A stretch of 20,645 nt of DNA from a virus: positions 1-20,645 of the IMG/VR virus record IMGVR_UViG_3300026544_000029; one strand, written 5' to 3'. Position numbers and translations under genes: made by a program. The notes beneath the pieces are model-generated. The model had not been told where the DNA came from, ran no database searches, and saw only the letters and a program-made list of their open reading frames with translations. Below are positions 435-13,526 of the stretch, piece by piece. Numbering within the stretch: position 1 is the stretch's first letter; the number at the start of each line of letters is the position of its first letter.

Positions 435-1071
435 TCCAACACTTAGAATAGCAGGAAGGACTGCTATATCTGTTCTTTCAAATATATTTGGTTTAGAGGG
501 AGAAATGTATTATCCCAAAGGATATGATTCAGCAAGGGGTGGATATGACGATGAGATTCAATACTCAGACACTCCTGACTGGACAGGTAAATTTCTAGCA
601 CCCTTTGTATTTGGAGGAGCGAAAGTTCAGTATGGTGGATTTTTTGATGAGTTAAATGGTGACGAAAAAGCAATTTTCTTTGATGACTTATCTACTGTTC
701 CTATTGGGTCGCTTATGGTTTTCAAAATGCCAGCGGGCGAACAATTATACAAAATAGATGACTTAGTAACAAACAATGATGAGTTTGGTGCTATATACAA
801 GAAAGTTATTGTAGTTCCTGTAACTAAAATAAACGAACACACTCCTAAGAAACAAGAATTACAAGAAGAATATCTTGATAAAATTGTTGAAGAAGAAATT
901 AATGAAGATACTTCTGCTGATGAATTTTTGAATGATTTATTGGGCGAACCAATGAAAGAATTAAAATCTACTCAAAAACACAGAAAAGAAAACACTGAAA
1001 TTATAGTAGACTCTTTTATGAATGCTTCAACGATAAGTATTGATTTGGATGATGAAGATTTATTAGAATAA
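424..1071 (+). CDS. putative neck protein, T4 gp14-like
   Basis: I chose the GTG at 424 because GAGGAGG at 411-417 sits six bases upstream; in-frame ATGs at 388 and 409 have no such site. The 215-residue product has a globular N-terminal half and an acidic, Lys/Glu-rich C-terminal tail from about residue 130. Features recalling T4 neck protein gp14 are an early MYYP motif (gp14 has CYYVP), a Phe/Gly-rich stretch (YGGFFDELNG) and then GSLMVFKMPAGEQLYKID, which matches gp14's 'GDLIYFP...LFEI' strand pair. T4 gp14 is 256 residues, so the length is compatible. It overlaps the upstream gene by 11 bases. If correct, it would sit in the head-tail connector with the gp13-like protein encoded near 14.4 kb. 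The homology is remote and read by eye; another head-completion role is possible. Confidence 0.5.
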   Translation: MLFSPTLRIAGRTAISVLSNIFGLEGEMYYPKGYDSARGGYDDEIQYSDTPDWTGKFLAPFVFGGAKVQYGGFFDELNGDEKAIFFDDLSTVPIGSLMVFKMPAGEQLYKIDDLVTNNDEFGAIYKKVIVVPVTKINEHTPKKQELQEEYLDKIVEEEINEDTSADEFLNDLLGEPMKELKSTQKHRKENTEIIVDSFMNASTISIDLDDEDLLE

Positions 1072-1080
1072 AGGAGATTA

Positions 1081-1395
1081 ATGAACAAGAGTTCAAGACA
1101 AATTTGGTTACTTTTGAAAGGGTATATTAACCAAATTTGTAAAGACAAAGAAATAGATTTTGCTGAATTTGCAAATAATTTCGAACAACACAGATCCCTT
1201 TCAATGATTGATGATATTATTATACTTGTACAAAAATATTCAAAAATCAGACCCTTCTCTGTCGAATATGATAAATTCGACAAACTTACTACAATCACAA
1301 AAAATGGAATGGAAGTTTTTGAAGTTAATTCAGAAGCAGAAGAACTTTTAGTTTGTATTCTATCCTCAATCATATATTCAGAACTTTCTAAATAA
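1081..1395 (+). CDS. uncharacterised small protein
   Basis: This 104-residue ORF starts at ATG 1081 behind AAGGAG (1072-1077), nine bases after the preceding stop, so it belongs to the same transcript as the gp14-like gene. It is mostly helical in appearance (RQIWLLLKGYINQICKDKEI, then SEAEELLVCILSSIIYSEL), with no signal peptide and no clear membrane segment. I do not recognise the family. Its place between a neck gene and the large terminase is where T4 carries gene 15 and the small terminase gene 16, so a packaging role is possible, but no sequence feature supports that. The operon appears to end here, because a new promoter follows. Confidence 0.6.
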   Translation: MNKSSRQIWLLLKGYINQICKDKEIDFAEFANNFEQHRSLSMIDDIIILVQKYSKIRPFSVEYDKFDKLTTITKNGMEVFEVNSEAEELLVCILSSIIYSELSK

Positions 1396-1413
1396 TTCTA
1401 AAGTTCTGGATAA

Positions 1414-1448
1414 TTTAATTAAATCTTAAGGTTTATTACAGTATAATA
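1414..1448 (+). promoter_or_regulatory. promoter with AATCTTAA - 12 bp - TATAAT
   Basis: AATCTTAA (1422-1429) is followed after exactly 12 bases by TATAAT (1442-1447), 26 bases before the ATG of the next gene. The whole 35-base block recurs exactly at 20509-20543, also just upstream of an ATG. There is no good -35 hexamer at 17-base spacing. A box 12 bases upstream of TATAAT is the geometry of T4 MotA-dependent middle promoters, so an activator-dependent early or middle promoter is inferred. Confidence 0.65.
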
Positions 1449-1473
1449 AAAAATATTAACAAAAGGAATAAAT

Positions 1474-1692
1474 ATGGCAGAACCTAAAAATATGGTTTTT
1501 ACTATTGATAAAGAAAATAATTGTACAGTAGATGGTACAAAAAATATACAAGTTGAAGATTTGGTAACTATGCTTTCTGTATGTTATGCTCTTTTAAAAG
1601 AAGCAGAGGAAAATTCAGATTTAGATTTAGAAGAAGTATTAGAACTTATTGATGCTGGTTCAGACACAACTTTAGATGTTGAAGGAGAATAA
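1474..1692 (+). CDS. small acidic protein, paralogue of its downstream neighbour
   Basis: This 72-residue product starts at ATG 1474 with AAAAGGAA just upstream and is the first gene after the promoter at 1414-1448. It is strongly acidic in its C-terminal half. Residues 23-42 (KNIQVEDLVTMLSVCYALLK) align with residues 22-41 of the next protein (ENITAQNLVYVMTHLSAIVK), and the preceding strands also match, so the two are tandem paralogues: a short beta segment followed by a helix. The function is not recognised. Its position directly before the terminase would suit a packaging or regulatory role, but no helix-turn-helix or other motif is visible. Confidence 0.6.
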   Translation: MAEPKNMVFTIDKENNCTVDGTKNIQVEDLVTMLSVCYALLKEAEENSDLDLEEVLELIDAGSDTTLDVEGE

Positions 1693-1917
1693 ATGAAAAC
1701 AGAAAATGTTACTTTACAATTTAATTTAGAAGAAGGGGTTCAACTAGAATCTTCAGAAAATATAACTGCTCAAAATTTAGTTTATGTTATGACTCACTTA
1801 TCTGCTATTGTAAAATCAATCAGCAAATCTGATGAAAATAATCCATCTTATGCTGATATTATGACAGTCGTAAGAGATGCTGGTGAAAAGTTTAGAAAAG
1901 AGATCCCTGAACAATAA
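1693..1917 (+). CDS. small protein, tandem paralogue of the preceding gene
   Basis: The ATG at 1693 abuts the preceding TAA (1690-1692), and GAAGGAG just before that stop serves as ribosome binding site, so translation is coupled. The product has 74 residues: an N-terminal strand pair (VTLQFNLEEGVQLES), the shared motif ENITAQNLVYVMTHLSAIVK, a short polar loop, then a helix ending in a basic/acidic tail (DAGEKFRKEIPEQ). It resembles the upstream protein in order and spacing of these elements. No known family is recognised. It lies ten bases before the first terminase gene and probably shares its transcript. Confidence 0.6.
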   Translation: MKTENVTLQFNLEEGVQLESSENITAQNLVYVMTHLSAIVKSISKSDENNPSYADIMTVVRDAGEKFRKEIPEQ

Positions 1918-1926
1918 GGTTTATCT

Positions 1927-2244
1927 ATGTCAGTGAAACAAGTTTATAAGGAAATGTCTAAACGACTTCAATACGAAAAAACACCTCCCACTATAAACGA
2001 GTTTCTTTCAAATCCTTATTATTTAGGTGAAGAAACTCAGGAAGGAACGAAAGTTTTCAAATACTGGAAAGATAAACTTAACGAATGGTATCCCACACCA
2101 TTCTTTGAATATGATCCGAATTTGAAAATCGTATTGATGTCTGGAGGGACTGGAATCGGGAAATGTCTTGGAAAAGACCAAGAATTGGAGATTTTGATGT
2201 CAGATGAAGATATTAAAAAATATAATTTAGAAGAGTATTTATAA
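1927..2244 (+). CDS. terL: terminase large subunit N-terminal part fused to split-intein N-fragment
   Basis: The product has 105 residues. Residues 1-79 are the N-extein: a T4 gp17-like start with NEFLSNPYYLG and TPFFEYDPNLKIVLMSGG, ending in GGTGIGK (73-79), which is Walker A without its final Thr. Residue 80 is Cys and opens the 26-residue intein N-fragment CLGKDQELEILMSDEDIKKY..., with the usual block A pattern (Cys1, then alternating hydrophobics). The chain stops at 2242-2244 instead of continuing into an intein. The matching C-fragment and the rest of the terminase are encoded at 4684-6714. Protein splicing in trans would join K79 to Thr136 of that protein and complete GGTGIGKT. The unspliced product cannot be an ATPase. 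The stop overlaps the ATG of the next gene (TAATG). Packaging motor role is established for this family; trans-splicing is inferred. Confidence 0.9.
   Translation: MSVKQVYKEMSKRLQYEKTPPTINEFLSNPYYLGEETQEGTKVFKYWKDKLNEWYPTPFFEYDPNLKIVLMSGGTGIGKCLGKDQELEILMSDEDIKKYNLEEYL
2164..2241 (+). other. split intein N-fragment (IntN), 26 residues
   Basis: These bases encode the intein segment from Cys1 (TGT at 2164-2166) to the last residue before the stop. The nucleophilic Cys follows the Walker A lysine directly. At 26 residues it is far shorter than the roughly 100 residues of DnaE-type N-fragments and close to the atypically split terminase inteins such as AceL-TerL. Block B, normally in the N-fragment, is found instead in the C-fragment gene. 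Confidence 0.85.
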
Positions 2245-3830
2245 TGAGAATAATGTTTAGGCAAAAATATCTGAAAGATTTGAATACTGAAGAAGAGTTT
2301 CTTGCATTTATTTCTGATATAGATTTTATGCCATCTCTTCCAAAAGAATTTAAAGAATTTTTTCATAATAACATAAATGAAACTTTTAATAAATCAGATT
2401 TAGAACCAAAGAAATTGAGATCTCAATTCTACGGAAAGGTTTTGTGTTCTACAAAACCTTATTTCTACTTAATAAGAGGTTATAACCAAGAACAAGCAGA
2501 GCAAAAAGTTAAGGAATTAATACTCAAACAATCTAATGCTAATAAAGCAAAGATTGAACAAATGAGTCCTGAGGAAAGAAAGAGTTTCAATTCAAATAAA
2601 ACCAAAGGATTAAAAAATACTGAAAAGTATTGGACCAATCAAGGGTTCAGTAAGGAAGAAGCGAAAGAACAAGTCAAAAGAGAACAATCTAAAACTTCAA
2701 AAGAGTCTTGGAAATCAGGTAAAATGGACAACAGACTAATTCCTTCAAATATCGAGTATTGGACAAAACAAGGTTTAAGTGAGAACGAGGCAAAAGAGAA
2801 AGTTAGAGAATTTCAGTCAAAATTTTCATACGATAAATTACTTTTAAAATATTCAAATGTCGAAGCAGATAAGATTTTCGACGAGAGACAAATGAAATGG
2901 CAAGAGTCTTATAAATCAACTATGCTTGAAAAATATAATGTAAAGTCCTTTGTAGAAACTAAAGATTTCCAAAAATCAGTAGTACCAAACAAACCAGAAG
3001 CAGAAATAATTGAATTTATCAAGAGTATATATGATGGTGAGGTTATTCACAACGATAGAGAAGTTCTAAATGGTAAGGAATTGGATATTTTTATACCAGA
3101 ATTAAATTTTGCAATCGAATATAATGGTATAATGTGGCATTCAGATGGATTGGGGTTTCCAAAAAACCTAAATACAAAAGATTCTTTGTTAGAGAAAACT
3201 AATCAATGCGAAGATAAAAATATTCACTTATTTCATATTTTAGATACTGAATGGGACACCATAAAGAAGCAAATTTGGTTTAGTAAAATAGCAATAAAAT
3301 TAGGTAAAGTTAAAAGAAAGATATTCGCTAGAAAGTGTGAAATCAGACAAGTAAGTACTGAACGAGAAAAAGAGTTCTTATTCAAGAACCATTTACAAAG
3401 TTATACTCCATCAAGCGAAGCGATTGGATTATTTTTTGAAGACGAGTTGGTTTGTTTAGCGACCTTTGGTCAAAGTAGATTTAAAGAAGGAGAAACTGAA
3501 CTTATAAGATTTGCTTCTTTGAAGAATTGTATAGTAGTTGGAGGATTCTCGAAACTTACTAAAGAAAAAACATTCATTTCGTACGGAAATAGAAGATGGA
3601 CTTATAAAGAAAATGTATATGGGAAAACACTTCAATTAGAAAGTATATCTCCGCCGAATTTCTTTTACTATAAAAATAAACTTTTTTCTAGAATGTCTTA
3701 TCAAAAACATATGTTATCGGAAAAATTAGATAAATATGACGAAAATATGACTGCTAAAGAAAATATGTTAATGAATGGATTTAGAATATTTTATGATTCT
3801 GGAAATTATAAATATTCTTCCGAAAAATAG
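2244..3830 (+). CDS. free-standing homing endonuclease-like protein (Vsr-like, EDxHD type)
   Basis: The 528-residue protein starts at ATG 2244, overlapping the intein N-fragment stop. The N-terminal part holds three degenerate repeats near residues 73-97, 128-150 and 171-193, best seen as YWTNQGFSKEEAKEQVKREQ and YWTKQGLSENEAKEKVREFQ; such repeats are common in phage homing nucleases. A Vsr-like nuclease core follows at about 248-340: PEAEI (E252, E254), ELDIFIPELNFAIEYNG (D281, E292), MWHSD (H299, D301), then HLFHILDTEW. This order of E, D, H and D fits the EDxHD family reported with fractured split-intein genes (I-Bth0305I group). The C-terminal 190 residues (FLFKNHLQSY, IGLFFEDELVCLATFG, IRFASLKNCIVVGGFSKL) match the conserved tail of that family. 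It probably cuts intein-free terminase alleles and spreads the locus. Activity is inferred. Confidence 0.75.
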   Translation: MRIMFRQKYLKDLNTEEEFLAFISDIDFMPSLPKEFKEFFHNNINETFNKSDLEPKKLRSQFYGKVLCSTKPYFYLIRGYNQEQAEQKVKELILKQSNANKAKIEQMSPEERKSFNSNKTKGLKNTEKYWTNQGFSKEEAKEQVKREQSKTSKESWKSGKMDNRLIPSNIEYWTKQGLSENEAKEKVREFQSKFSYDKLLLKYSNVEADKIFDERQMKWQESYKSTMLEKYNVKSFVETKDFQKSVVPNKPEAEIIEFIKSIYDGEVIHNDREVLNGKELDIFIPELNFAIEYNGIMWHSDGLGFPKNLNTKDSLLEKTNQCEDKNIHLFHILDTEWDTIKKQIWFSKIAIKLGKVKRKIFARKCEIRQVSTEREKEFLFKNHLQSYTPSSEAIGLFFEDELVCLATFGQSRFKEGETELIRFASLKNCIVVGGFSKLTKEKTFISYGNRRWTYKENVYGKTLQLESISPPNFFYYKNKLFSRMSYQKHMLSEKLDKYDENMTAKENMLMNGFRIFYDSGNYKYSSEK

Positions 3831-3839
3831 ATTTTTCTT

Positions 3840-3868
3840 TTAACAAATTCTTATTTTTATAGTATAAT
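3840..3868 (+). promoter_or_regulatory. sigma70-like promoter inside the split-intein locus
   Basis: TTAACA (3840-3845), a 17-base spacer ending in ATAG, and TATAAT (3863-3868) lie between the endonuclease stop and the ATG at 3893. This is the best host-type promoter in the window and would let the next gene be expressed independently of the terminase transcript. Confidence 0.6.
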
Positions 3869-3892
3869 TATATTATATAAAAAGGAATAAAA

Positions 3893-4663
3893 ATGACAAA
3901 ACAATTTAACTTCATCACCCTCGAAGAAGCATATTATCAACCAAAATTATCGGAAAAATCAGCAATGGATTTAGTTCAACACATTTTACCTGATGCAAAA
4001 GAATTGTTTGAAAAGTTTGGAACTCCGATAAAGGAAACTATTGAAAGAGTGGTAGTTCTTTCAAGAAAACTCCAGCGAGAAAGTAAACTTAAACAAACAA
4101 AAGAATATCTTTTTAAAAGAATTGAACAAATCACAGAAGAAAGATATCAATTTACTGAGTACCAAAATTCAGTAGAACTAAGTAACAAAAACGAATCTTA
4201 TGCTATTTTTGTTAGAAATGGTTGGATTTATTTTTCAGATAAATTTAAAGCATCAAGCATAGAATCTTTCTTAAAACGATTACAACAATTTGTAGATAAA
4301 ATGTATGAAATAGATTACACTATAAAAGCAGAACAAGTTATTTCACATGTCATTAAAACCTCAAAACAAGAGGGAGTAAACCTTAGACGAAGTGACTTTT
4401 TGAACTTTTCAACTGATAATGGATTGAATATAATTCTGGAGGGAGAATGTTGGGTGAAAGTCAACAAAGTTGTGGGAACTTTGGCCAGAGTTCAACGGAA
4501 AACTAATATGAGTTTAGTTCAAAAAATTATGATTGCTGGAATACAAATTATGAGCAAAGAATTATCTCATATGAATAATTTCGGAATAAGACCACATAAA
4601 GTTATTCCAGACAAAAGAGCGCCGAGTTTATTTAGGGTGAAATATTCACCTATGTATTGTTAA
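3893..4663 (+). CDS. uncharacterised protein nested between the split-intein halves
   Basis: The 256-residue protein starts at ATG 3893 behind AAAAGGAA. I do not recognise it. The first 90 residues look helical (ETIERVVVLSRKLQRESKLK, then KEYLFKRIEQITEERYQF). Residues near 105-125 form an aromatic strand pair (YAIFVRNGWIYFSDKF) followed by helices. The last 60 residues are basic (VQRKTNMSLVQKIMIAGIQI; RPHKVIPDKRAPSLFRVKYS), which would suit nucleic-acid binding. It has no intein, nuclease or LAGLIDADG motif. It is separated from the endonuclease by 62 bases holding its own promoter and is followed closely by the intein C-fragment gene. It may be a passenger, a partner of the endonuclease, or a resident gene between which the intein broke. 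All three are guesses. Confidence 0.65.
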   Translation: MTKQFNFITLEEAYYQPKLSEKSAMDLVQHILPDAKELFEKFGTPIKETIERVVVLSRKLQRESKLKQTKEYLFKRIEQITEERYQFTEYQNSVELSNKNESYAIFVRNGWIYFSDKFKASSIESFLKRLQQFVDKMYEIDYTIKAEQVISHVIKTSKQEGVNLRRSDFLNFSTDNGLNIILEGECWVKVNKVVGTLARVQRKTNMSLVQKIMIAGIQIMSKELSHMNNFGIRPHKVIPDKRAPSLFRVKYSPMYC

Positions 4664-4683
4664 ATATTCTAAAAGGAATAAAT

Positions 4684-5088
4684 ATGAAAAAAATTAAAAT
4701 TCCTATTGGTATTTTATTTGAGCGATTAGGTATTTCTCACGAAGAAAATGAATATAATAATTCTGTCGGTCAAACTCACTATGCTACTCCTGATATGTTT
4801 GTTGAAACTCCCTCGGGGGTTGCTAAAATGAATTTTTTAGTTACAAAGAAAGTAGAAACTATGGATTTAATTCTTGAAAATGAAACAAGATTGAATGTAA
4901 GTTCGCACCACCACATTATCCAGAACGGAAAAGAGGTAAGTGCTGAAAAAGCAGTTAGTGTTGATAATAAAGATGGAAATTCGTATAAGGTTACTAGAAG
5001 AATAAGAAAATCAAATGAAATAGTTTTTGATTTTAATATAGACGATCCACATATATATTGTACTCCTGATGGAAGTTTACATCACAAT
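4684..5088 (+). other. split intein C-fragment (IntC), 135 residues
   Basis: It begins with KIKIPIGILFERL, which looks like the second strand-helix of an intein that usually follows block A. Next come YATPDMFVETPSG, a block B candidate SSHHHI (S73, H76), and blocks F and G: VFDFNIDDPHIYCTPDGSLH with H123, then penultimate His134, terminal Asn135 and +1 Thr (ACA 5089-5091). No endonuclease domain is inserted. Confidence 0.87.
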
Positions 5089-6714
5089 ACAAAGATTTCT
5101 ACTTATGCTATGTTATACGATATGTGCAGAGTCTTGCATCTTAAGAATCCACAAGAGAAGTTCAAACTTCCTGGAACGACGAAGATTATTTTTATGCTAA
5201 CAAACTCTACAATGGAAACTGCTGAAAGTATTAACTATGATCCAATTTTAGCGATTATGAGGGAAAGTCCATTCTTTGTTGAAATGTTTAGTAAATCAGA
5301 TAGAACTCTTTTTAATAAAAATATAGATTTAAGAATTTCAACTAGAAAAAGACAGTTAGTTGGTAAGGATGTTATCGGGGCAATTTCAGATGAGATTAAT
5401 CAAGAAGTTGTAAAGGGTGGATCTTTTGAGTTAGTTACCGAAATGATTAATAGGATTACATCTCGTTTCTTATTGAAAGGTGATACATGGCCGGCACATT
5501 ATTTCATTATATCGTCAGCACAAACAGATGCTTCATTAACCGAACAAATCAAGTCAAATTATGAAGGATTTTCTGGAATAGAAGTAGTAAATCCTGCTAG
5601 ATTTGATGTACTTGCTGAGAAAATTGATTATTGCGGCGAGAATTTTAAAGTTTTTATAGGTACTTATGATTCTGATCCATTTATAATCAACAATAAAGAT
5701 GACTACGATAAAGCATTCGCTATTGACCCTATGAAAATCTACGATGTACCGATTGAACATAAAATTGAGTTTAATAACTCTATATATGCTGGTATTCAAG
5801 ATGTTTTAGGTAAACCGACAGTGAGTTCAAAAACTTTTATAAAAGACAAAAAAGAGGTCGAAGAGTGTTTATCTCTTACGAAATTGTATGGTAAAGATTA
5901 TATGTATGTCTCTGATGAAGTTGAAGATAAAATTATAAACCATATGGATACAAAAAAACTTTTAGCATTCTCATCAAATATTATGCACAATCCAGAAGGG
6001 GAAGGTGAAAATTTCAAACGAGTAATTGCTTTGGATATTGGAGTAACAAGAGATAGATTTGGATTTGCTATGCTTCATAGAAGAAGTGAAATAAAAGTTA
6101 ATAGACAAAGAGAAAATCTATCAGGTACTTTTGAAGATTTTGTATATTGGGCAGATTTATGTATTGCTTTCTTACCATCAGTAAAAGGTAAAAAACTGAG
6201 ACTCGAGAAAATAAGAGATTTTATTAGAGATCTTAGAGAGATAGGATTTGATATAGCATTAGTAACTGCCGATGGTTATCAATCGCTTGACACTTTGCAA
6301 ATTCTAGAGAAAGATGGTTTTAAAGTTAAAGACTACTCAGTGGATAAAAAGAAAGATGCTTATTATGCTCTAAAATATGCAATTGAGGAGAAGAGATTAA
6401 AACTTCCTAAAAACGAAATACTAAGAGAAGAACTTTTTTGTTTAGTAGAAACTGATAAGAAGATAGACCACTTAGAAGACATCAGAAGTAATATAGAAGT
6501 TCTTAAAAATAGAGAATTAGATATAAGTAAAGATTTAACTGATGCTGTTGCTTCTTGTATTATAAATTTTAATGATATTCCTGTTTCAAAATTTGATAAT
6601 AAAGGGTTCGTCAATAAGTTGAAGGAATCTGCTGGATTAAGTTCAGGAGACCCTACTTATGATGCTTTAATCAGAATGGGTGGAGTGAATGTTGATTTAT
6701 TTGGAGAAATCTAA
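4684..6714 (+). CDS. terL: split-intein C-fragment fused to terminase large subunit ATPase-nuclease part
   Basis: I place the start at ATG 4684, behind AAAAGGAA; a TTG nine codons upstream lacks a ribosome binding site. The product has 676 residues. Residues 1-135 are the intein C-fragment, ending LHHN; Thr136 begins the C-extein (TKISTYAMLYDM). The remaining 541 residues carry the gp17-like motor: Walker B GAISDE (D236, E237), the coupling motif IISSAQ (275-280), then the RNase H-like nuclease with RVIALDIG (D451), ALVTADG (D530) and KDLTDA (D620). After splicing to the 79-residue N-extein the terminase would have 620 residues, close to T4 gp17 (610). It binds the portal and pumps and cuts concatemeric DNA. 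After the stop comes a short copy of scaffold-coding sequence, then the portal gene. Terminase assignment is firm. Confidence 0.92.
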   Translation: MKKIKIPIGILFERLGISHEENEYNNSVGQTHYATPDMFVETPSGVAKMNFLVTKKVETMDLILENETRLNVSSHHHIIQNGKEVSAEKAVSVDNKDGNSYKVTRRIRKSNEIVFDFNIDDPHIYCTPDGSLHHNTKISTYAMLYDMCRVLHLKNPQEKFKLPGTTKIIFMLTNSTMETAESINYDPILAIMRESPFFVEMFSKSDRTLFNKNIDLRISTRKRQLVGKDVIGAISDEINQEVVKGGSFELVTEMINRITSRFLLKGDTWPAHYFIISSAQTDASLTEQIKSNYEGFSGIEVVNPARFDVLAEKIDYCGENFKVFIGTYDSDPFIINNKDDYDKAFAIDPMKIYDVPIEHKIEFNNSIYAGIQDVLGKPTVSSKTFIKDKKEVEECLSLTKLYGKDYMYVSDEVEDKIINHMDTKKLLAFSSNIMHNPEGEGENFKRVIALDIGVTRDRFGFAMLHRRSEIKVNRQRENLSGTFEDFVYWADLCIAFLPSVKGKKLRLEKIRDFIRDLREIGFDIALVTADGYQSLDTLQILEKDGFKVKDYSVDKKKDAYYALKYAIEEKRLKLPKNEILREELFCLVETDKKIDHLEDIRSNIEVLKNRELDISKDLTDAVASCIINFNDIPVSKFDNKGFVNKLKESAGLSSGDPTYDALIRMGGVNVDLFGEI

Positions 6715-12890: not shown

Positions 12891-13526
12891 ATGAAATTAA
12901 ATTTCGAAGATATTATAAAGATCGTTGAAAATGATAGCACTTTAATAGTGAAATCAATTGACGAAGGTCTTATTATAAAAAGATTACAAGATGATAATAC
13001 TTTTGATGAAATTATGCTTATTCTTTCAAAATTCGGAGTAAAATCAACTGATATTACTGTGACTGAAGAAGGGACATTAATTAATTCAAATCATTATAAT
13101 TCACAAAAATTAAAGATGTTACTTGCACCTTTCCACAATCTTGAAGAAATGGAAGTAAAAGATGCATGGAATCTATTACTAAGAAATGTATTTTTCTCAG
13201 AAATAAAAGATCCAATGACAGGTGAAATTAAAGAAGACGGTGCTGAAGCATCTGCTAGTGCTGACAGTTTAGGTGAAGTTCCGAATGGTACTCCAAGTAC
13301 ACCTACAAGTGGAAATTCTGAAAGTTCTGTTCCTCAAACAATTGAAGATTTAGCAAAAACTTTAGATGGAATTTTAAATAATGTTAATATTTCAATAGTA
13401 AGTGATACTGAATTAGAACTTAGTTCTTCTGATGATATTGTAAATACTATTAAAGATAACGAAAAATTGTTTGATGGTTTTGAAGTTACTATACTTCCAG
13501 ATTTAATAACAATCGTAAAAAAATAA
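12891..13526 (+). CDS. uncharacterised two-domain head-region protein
   Basis: ATG 12891 immediately follows the preceding TAA, with GAGGG just upstream, so translation is coupled. The 211-residue protein has an N-terminal alpha/beta domain (about 1-110), then a Ser/Thr/Gly/Pro linker (residues about 118-150, for example NGTPSTPTSGNSESS), then a small C-terminal alpha/beta domain (ISIVSDTELELSSSDDI ... FEVTILPDLITIVKK). Both ends show a 'strand with V/I-x-D-x-E/T-L, then helix with hydrophobic phase, then strand' order, so the C-terminal domain could be a diverged copy of the first 60 residues. Function is unknown. It is encoded in the block of capsid-linked genes and its linker suggests a flexible structural or scaffold-associated protein. 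Confidence 0.6.
   Translation: MKLNFEDIIKIVENDSTLIVKSIDEGLIIKRLQDDNTFDEIMLILSKFGVKSTDITVTEEGTLINSNHYNSQKLKMLLAPFHNLEEMEVKDAWNLLLRNVFFSEIKDPMTGEIKEDGAEASASADSLGEVPNGTPSTPTSGNSESSVPQTIEDLAKTLDGILNNVNISIVSDTELELSSSDDIVNTIKDNEKLFDGFEVTILPDLITIVKK

What the first reader, a model, noticed from the sequence alone, without database searches (positions are those of the whole stretch)
1927..6714. Fractured large-terminase gene with a split intein exactly at the Walker A motif
One gene ends GGTGIGK followed by an intein-like Cys segment and a stop. Another, 2.4 kb away, begins with an intein C-fragment ending HHN and continues Thr-Lys-Ile-Ser with the rest of a gp17-like terminase (Walker B D236/E237, nuclease D451, D530, D620). 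Joined, they give GGTGIGKT and a 620-residue terminase. The +1 splicing residue is the P-loop threonine, so no ATPase exists until trans-splicing occurs. This matches the 'fractured gene' layout described for phage split inteins from metagenomes, here with two whole genes between the halves.
Basis: partly seen in the sequence, partly recalled or inferred. Interest (0 to 1): 0.87.

Follow-up and report, generated by a model that had tools for sequence, protein, structure and literature searches.

The report
Phage packaging motor gene split by intein
In an uncultured T4-like phage the gene for the DNA-packaging motor (large terminase) is broken into two separate genes exactly inside its ATP-binding motif, each half carrying part of a self-splicing intein that should stitch the two proteins together; relatives show the break moves between phages, survives loss of its homing nuclease, and has collected other genes inside it.

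Summary
P0001 (1927-2244) is 79 residues of TerL ending GGTGIGK plus a 26-aa IntN. P0004 (4684-6714) is a 135-aa IntC ending HHN plus 541 residues of TerL beginning T. The join falls between the Walker A Lys and Thr, where Rhizobium, Thermus and Acinetobacter phages have uninterrupted terminases. A profile of uninterrupted TerLs scores the joined protein at 535 bits and the C- and N-halves at 444 and 73. A fold search finds both terminases and inteins. The first gene between the halves is a homing endonuclease, and the layout recurs. Nine other viral contigs carry the same intein at the same site. Their gaps hold HEN plus an unknown gene (one contig), another HEN (one), HEN plus three ORFs (one), a 91-aa gene without HEN (one), a 76-aa ORF (one) or 106 bp (one). 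Two contigs with 93%-identical TerL exteins differ in having or lacking the insert, so the element moves. The kind is known: fractured genes, and AceL/GOS TerL and VidaL split inteins. Differences are the combination of P-loop site with an S1-like split, and HEN-independent persistence with resident genes. Trans-splicing itself is inferred, not shown.

The parts
1927..2163 (+). TerL N-extein, 79 aa, ending ...SGGTGIGK (Walker A up to the Lys)
   Evidence: Profile of uninterrupted TerL N-termini, E 7.6e-23, only hit among 230 window ORFs; colinear alignment with Rhizobium/Thermus/Acinetobacter phage TerLs
2164..2241 (+). IntN, 26 aa: CLGKDQELEILMSDEDIKKYNLEEYL (Cys1), stop at 2242-2244
   Evidence: Cys1 and the QE.E..MSEEDI..Y.LEE pattern conserved in L002, L004, L017, L033, L099
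2244..3830 (+). Homing endonuclease, 528 aa; start codon overlaps the stop of the N-half (TAATG)
   Evidence: phrog_3339 homing endonuclease E 1.6e-89; E254/D281/H299 invariant in 4 aligned relatives; relatives free-standing near the major capsid gene in T4-like phages
3840..3868 (+). Promoter-like TTAACA-17-TATAAT, 11 of 12, before the 256-aa gene
   Evidence: the count of such sites in the region is near the shuffled expectation, so weak
3893..4663 (+). 256-aa protein of unknown function lodged in the fracture
   Evidence: Only relative found is in the same place in L002 (63% identity, dN/dS 0.18); no significant PHROG, Pfam or phage match
4684..5088 (+). IntC, 135 aa, block B SSHHH, block F VFDFNID, block G TPDGSLHHN
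   Evidence: Profile of the joined intein hits solved inteins: DnaE 1.4e-7, gp41-1 0.0057, CatC 0.026; Foldseek hits gp41-1 6.1e-5, Cat 2.8e-4, VidaL 2.9e-3; dN/dS 0.22 against L002
5089..6711 (+). TerL C-extein, 541 aa, +1 Thr of Walker A, then Walker B (D236/E237 of P0004) and nuclease (D451, D530, D620)
   Evidence: tblastn to annotated phage TerLs, E down to 1e-47; Foldseek HK97 terminase 4.4e-8, D6E terminase 2.7e-6, G20c terminase nuclease 1.9e-4

Best explanation
The large-terminase gene of this myovirus is fractured by a mobile element made of a naturally split intein and a homing endonuclease (HEN). Two precursors are translated separately: TerL(1-79)-IntN(26 aa) and IntC(135 aa)-TerL(80-620). 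IntN docks on the nearly complete Hint domain of IntC. Cys1, the block B and F residues, His-Asn of block G and Thr+1 carry out protein trans-splicing. This joins Lys79 to Thr80, restores GGTGIGKT, and so yields the only functional packaging ATPase. The HEN most likely spread the element into intein-less terminase alleles by cutting at or near this site. After the split the halves no longer need to be adjacent, so the HEN can be lost or replaced and other genes can lodge between the halves. Shown from sequence: homology, junction, conservation of the catalytic residues, recurrence, and presence/absence in close relatives. Inferred: trans-splicing, dependence of packaging on it, and HEN-driven homing.
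For: Colinear uninterrupted homologues with GIGK|TT, GQGK|ST and GIGK|ST at the join. Joined protein 535 bits against 444 and 73 for the halves. Intein profile and fold hits. Same site and intein in L002, L004, L013, L014, L016, L017, L033, L098, L099, with separate N-halves seen in L002, L004, L014, L017, L033 and L099. Cys1 (in the readable N-halves) and HN|T/S conserved in every copy. IntC under purifying selection, dN/dS 0.22. Occupied L033 and empty L031 have exteins 93.4% identical; L033 IntC is 63% identical to L017 IntC while their exteins are 38% identical; the extein tree forces three changes of state. HEN in PHROG 3339.
Against: No protein data. No experiment shows that this IntN and IntC associate. 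IntC changes about five times faster than TerL at the protein level (dN/dS 0.22 against 0.04), so constraint is only moderate. HEN relatives in T4-like phages are free-standing beside capsid genes, so this HEN may not recognise the terminase site. L004 and L099 have no HEN in the gap. In L014 the N-half carries a frameshift in the contig. Flanks of the L033/L031 pair show only a weak dip next to the insert (73% in the first 60 bp downstream against about 88% elsewhere), so co-conversion is not shown.
Confidence: 0.9

Rival explanations
1. The halves do not splice; they assemble non-covalently into a working terminase (a two-chain ATPase), and the intein remnants only hold them together.
For: IntC evolves faster than TerL; block B has S, A or D instead of the usual Thr three residues before the His.
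Against: Cys1 and His-Asn|Thr/Ser are conserved in all intact copies over exteins that are as little as 31-38% identical; a P-loop with Lys and Thr on different chains next to an unspliced Hint domain is unlikely to bind ATP.
Confidence: 0.05
2. Assembly or sequencing artefact: really one continuous terminase gene with a contiguous intein.
For: Single metagenomic contig; L014 has a frameshifted N-half.
Against: L002 has the same layout from another sample with 85% HEN and 91% extein identity; L004, L017, L033 and L099 have separate, complete halves with stop codons and start sites.
Confidence: 0.02
3. RNA-level splicing (group I or II intron carrying a HEN) removes the gap, as in ICP1 terL (PMC10448857).
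For: Phage terminases are interrupted by introns with HENs nearby in other phages.
Against: No Rfam intron family in the window up to E 0.5; the coding sequences flanking the gap are a conserved intein with HHN|T; gap length varies from 106 bp to 3.4 kb between relatives.
Confidence: 0.02
4. Split intein as stated, but the gap HEN is an independent free-standing homing gene that landed in a tolerant spot and does not mobilise the intein.
For: HEN relatives sit alone beside major capsid genes; unrelated HEN-like ORFs occupy the gap in L033 and in L017/window; L004 and L099 have none.
Against: A HEN sits in the gap of four of the seven cases whose gap is fully seen (window, L002, L017, L033); the element has moved between terminases.
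Confidence: 0.3

Closest known systems
Fractured genes with split inteins and free-standing homing endonucleases (Dassa et al. 2009, NAR 37:2560; paper not held, known from citing papers and memory)
   Same: Host gene broken into two genes, split intein halves on each, HEN gene between
   Different: An additional non-HEN gene between the halves; relatives keep the fracture without HEN and with other resident genes; I could not check whether such cases are in that paper
AceL-TerL, GOS-TerL and Cat split inteins (PMC11766414, PMC13014065; Cat structure 6dsl)
   Same: Split inteins in phage large terminases, short IntN (25-37 aa)
   Different: About 25% identity to AceL (AceL sequence recalled, checked by its match to CatC). 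AceL/GOS are split after helix alpha1 (S2); here the KIKIPIGILFERL element lies at the start of IntC, so the split is before alpha1 (S1-like). +1 is Thr at the P-loop; GOS-TerL has Cys+1
VidaL and PolB16 split inteins (S1 split; PMC13014065; VidaL structure 6vgv)
   Same: Split after beta2, short IntN
   Different: IntN is 26-32 aa here against 15-16 aa, with a conserved MSEEDIxxYxLEE extension; host gene is TerL; sequence similarity to VidaL is marginal (E 0.42)
TerL1-a contiguous inteins of mycobacteriophages (PMC5050341)
   Same: Same insertion point, between the invariant Lys and Thr of the TerL P-loop
   Different: Those are described as inteins within one gene; here split in two genes
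gp41 of Vibrio phage vB_VmeM-32 (KU160494, L008)
   Same: Isolate phage with the same short-IntN split type, a HEN-like ORF between, IntC 30% identical, HHN|T
   Different: Host gene is the replicative helicase; no second gene between the halves in the ORF list

Membership tests
Large terminase (TerL) | Sequence or fold similarity to known TerL over ATPase and nuclease | tested here: met
Large terminase (TerL) | Walker A, Walker B and three nuclease acidic residues | tested here: met
   GGTGIGK|T on joining; D236/E237, D451, D530, D620 invariant
Large terminase (TerL) | Pfam terminase model above cut-off | tested here: not met
   No Pfam hit for P0004; nor for the Rhizobium TerL annotated as terminase, nor the Thermus and Acinetobacter homologues, so the models miss this branch
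Intein | Nucleophile at position 1, block B His, terminal His-Asn, nucleophile at +1 | tested here: met
Intein | Hint fold | tested here: met
   Foldseek of the P0004 model to gp41-1, Cat, NpuDnaE, VidaL; IntC part partly of low confidence
Intein | Protein splicing activity | not testable with these tools
   Needs expression
Fractured gene (Dassa type) | Two genes with intein halves on the same host protein | tested here: met
Fractured gene (Dassa type) | Free-standing homing endonuclease between the halves | tested here: met
   PHROG 3339, E 1.6e-89
Vsr-like (EDxHD) homing endonuclease | Vsr fold and E-D-x-H-D catalytic residues | tested here: inconclusive
   E254, D281, H299 invariant with Vsr-like spacing (Vsr spacing from memory); no match to a solved Vsr-like HEN
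AceL/GOS TerL split inteins | Split after alpha1 (S2) | tested here: not met
   Alignment puts the split before the alpha1 element
S1-type natural split inteins (VidaL, PolB16) | Split right after beta2 | tested here: met
   Position by alignment with the contiguous intein of LR756508 and with AceL; no structure of the joined intein

The most novel reading that the evidence does not exclude
The fracture has become a lasting genetic niche: once TerL depends on trans-splicing, the interval between the halves keeps dedicated non-nuclease genes (the 256-aa gene in two phages, the 91-95-aa gene in four). All copies of these that the scans found lie inside the terminase fracture, and they may act on splicing or on the timing of motor assembly.
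Probability: 0.08. Interest if true: 0.75.

Novelty: new variant of a known kind. Interest (0 to 1): 0.5.

Why it matters
It gives a natural series, within one host gene and one insertion site, of empty site, HEN-bearing fracture, HEN-less fracture and fracture with resident genes. That makes it possible to test whether splitting an intein is a one-way ratchet that outlives the mobile element that caused it. It also places the splice junction on the catalytic P-loop of the packaging motor, and adds a set of S1-split inteins with a conserved IntN extension that could serve as protein-ligation tools.

Tried and rejected
Structure of the 256-aa gene: model worthless (mean pLDDT 34, two sequences). 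Pfam, NCBIfam and PDB by sequence for P0004: nothing significant; the TerL profile also fails against PDB sequences, so the fold search was needed. Introns: none in Rfam. Co-conversion around the L033/L031 insert: weak dip only, not counted as evidence. The idea that the intein of the window and L002 was acquired separately was dropped: dS is similar in IntC and extein, only dN differs. Relation between the 256-aa and 91-95-aa resident genes: none (hhalign E 0.27). Inteins of this family in 84,980 cellular genomes: none found. Dassa 2009, the GOS-TerL and Cat papers and Aranko 2014 are not held, so comparison with them rests on citing papers and memory.

Full report
What is there. The window is a whole 20.6 kb IMG/VR record with a head and tail module of a T4-like myovirus: Gp23-type capsid protein, S77 prohead protease, sheath. 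P0001 (1927-2244) is 105 aa and ends SGGTGIGK followed by CLGKDQELEILMSDEDIKKYNLEEYL. P0004 starts best at ATG 4684, after AAAAGGA. It begins with 135 aa ending TPDGSLHHN and continues TKISTYAMLYDM with 541 aa. Between them lie a 528-aa ORF, whose ATG overlaps the stop of P0001, and a 256-aa ORF.

The host protein is TerL. tblastn of P0004 finds annotated terminases of Rhizobium, Maribacter, Vibrio and other phages. Three uninterrupted proteins, from Rhizobium phage RHph_TM39, Thermus phage phiLo and Acinetobacter phage Ab1-TPeters, align along both halves, with GQGK|ST, GIGK|TT and GIGK|ST at the join. A profile of 15 uninterrupted homologues scores the joined 620-aa protein at 535 bits, the C-half at 444 and the N-half at 73. 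A profile of their N-termini finds only the N-half among 230 window ORFs, at E 7.6e-23. A model of P0004 (mean pLDDT 69) matches HK97 and D6E terminases, the G20c terminase nuclease and, in shorter alignments, gp41-1, Cat, NpuDnaE and VidaL inteins. Pfam models miss this TerL branch, including its annotated members.

The intein. A profile of seven joined inteins hits solved inteins (DnaE 1.4e-7, gp41-1 0.006). Cys1 is present in the readable N-halves, and the block B His, block F Asp and His-Asn are present in every copy; +1 is Thr, once Ser. A contiguous intein of the same type sits in the P-loop of a clamp-loader-like ATPase of an uncultured phage, LR756508. Against it and AceL-TerL, the break lies before the KIKIPIGILFERL element, which in AceL is still part of IntN. 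The split is therefore S1-like, as reported for VidaL and PolB16 (PMC13014065), but with a longer IntN of 26-32 aa. The insertion point is the classic TerL1-a site between Lys and Thr (PMC5050341).

Recurrence. The same intein at the same codon boundary is found in nine further contigs. L002: TerL C-extein 91% identical, HEN and 256-aa gene between the halves. L014: 67%, a 76-aa ORF between, N-half frameshifted in the contig. L013: 64%, contig ends inside IntC. L016 and L098: a 94- or 95-aa gene before the C-half, N-half off the contig. L099: a 91-aa gene only. L017: 47%, a 628-aa HEN, a 53-aa ORF, a DUF285 protein and a 92-aa gene. L004: 38%, only 106 bp with a 21-aa ORF. L033: 32%, a different 324-aa HEN-like ORF overlapping both halves. 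Many relatives have the site empty. The 91-95-aa gene was found only in the fracture, in four contigs, and the 256-aa gene only in two. These scans reach close relatives only.

Movement. L033 and L031 have TerL exteins 93.4% identical, yet only L033 carries the insert (1424 nt, same codon boundary). L033 IntC is 63% identical to that of L017, while their exteins are 38% identical. The extein tree needs at least three changes of state. Gain and loss cannot be told apart for each event, but the intein/extein identities of L033 argue for transfer. Between the window and L002 the intein protein is only 60% identical against 91% for TerL, with similar dS, so it changes faster in place (dN/dS 0.22 against 0.04) while still constrained.

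The endonuclease. The 528-aa protein belongs to PHROG 3339, homing endonucleases. Glu254, Asp281 and His299 are invariant among relatives with spacing like that of Vsr (the Vsr comparison is from memory). Relatives in T4-like Acinetobacter and Providencia phages stand alone beside the major capsid gene. Whether this enzyme cuts the empty terL site is not known.

Mechanism. Two precursors, made from nearby genes, should associate and trans-splice to give GGTGIGKT. Because Lys and Thr of the P-loop are on different chains, ATP hydrolysis should depend on splicing. This is inferred. The fracture survives without the HEN and with unrelated genes between the halves, which fits a ratchet: after the split the halves are free to part, while reversal needs an exact fusion.

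Comparison and novelty. The kind is known: fractured genes with split inteins and HENs, split inteins in phage TerL, S1 splits, and P-loop insertions. New, as far as I could check, is the combination, and the series with HEN loss and resident genes. The key paper (Dassa 2009) could not be read. Interest 0.5.

Noticed in passing
L008 (Vibrio phage vB_VmeM-32, KU160494) 742-6119: This isolate appears to have two fractured replication genes close together: a RecA-like (uvsX) gene with a SegG-like HEN and a HintC domain in the second part, and gp41 helicase with a HEN-like ORF between. The gp41 C-half (4953-6119) is not annotated. A cultivable model for the same split type.
   Followed up: partly
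L009 (LR756508) 3824-5218: Contiguous intein of the same type in the P-loop of a clamp-loader-like ATPase (GTGK|C...CHN|T), unannotated.
   Followed up: partly
L017 3117-3278: 53-aa ORF whose end (KIVYSMSDEDIEKYELSEYMED) resembles the tail of IntN: a partial IntN-like copy in the gap.
   Followed up: no
L099 3725-4000; L016 922-1206; L098 334-621; L017 4250-4528: A 91-95-aa protein family of unknown function; all four copies found lie directly before the C-half, inside the terminase fracture.
   Followed up: partly
L039 202-2895: Contiguous intein with a LAGLIDADG nuclease at the same TerL site (GSGK|C...THN|S): an unrelated intein type hitting the same codons.
   Followed up: partly
L026 1-300: An intein C-end (CSN|C) just before the Walker A of a related TerL, a neighbouring insertion site.
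   Followed up: no
L033 1-1725: DNA-methyltransferase-like ORF that seems to hold an intein (start ...GGSP|C, end VIVHN|C).
   Followed up: no
L003 6530-7690: A relative of the gap HEN stands alone after the major capsid gene in a relative of the window phage.
   Followed up: no
window 12981-13058: Sub-threshold Rfam snoZ155 match (E 0.039, below gathering), inside a protein-coding ORF; taken as chance.
   Followed up: no
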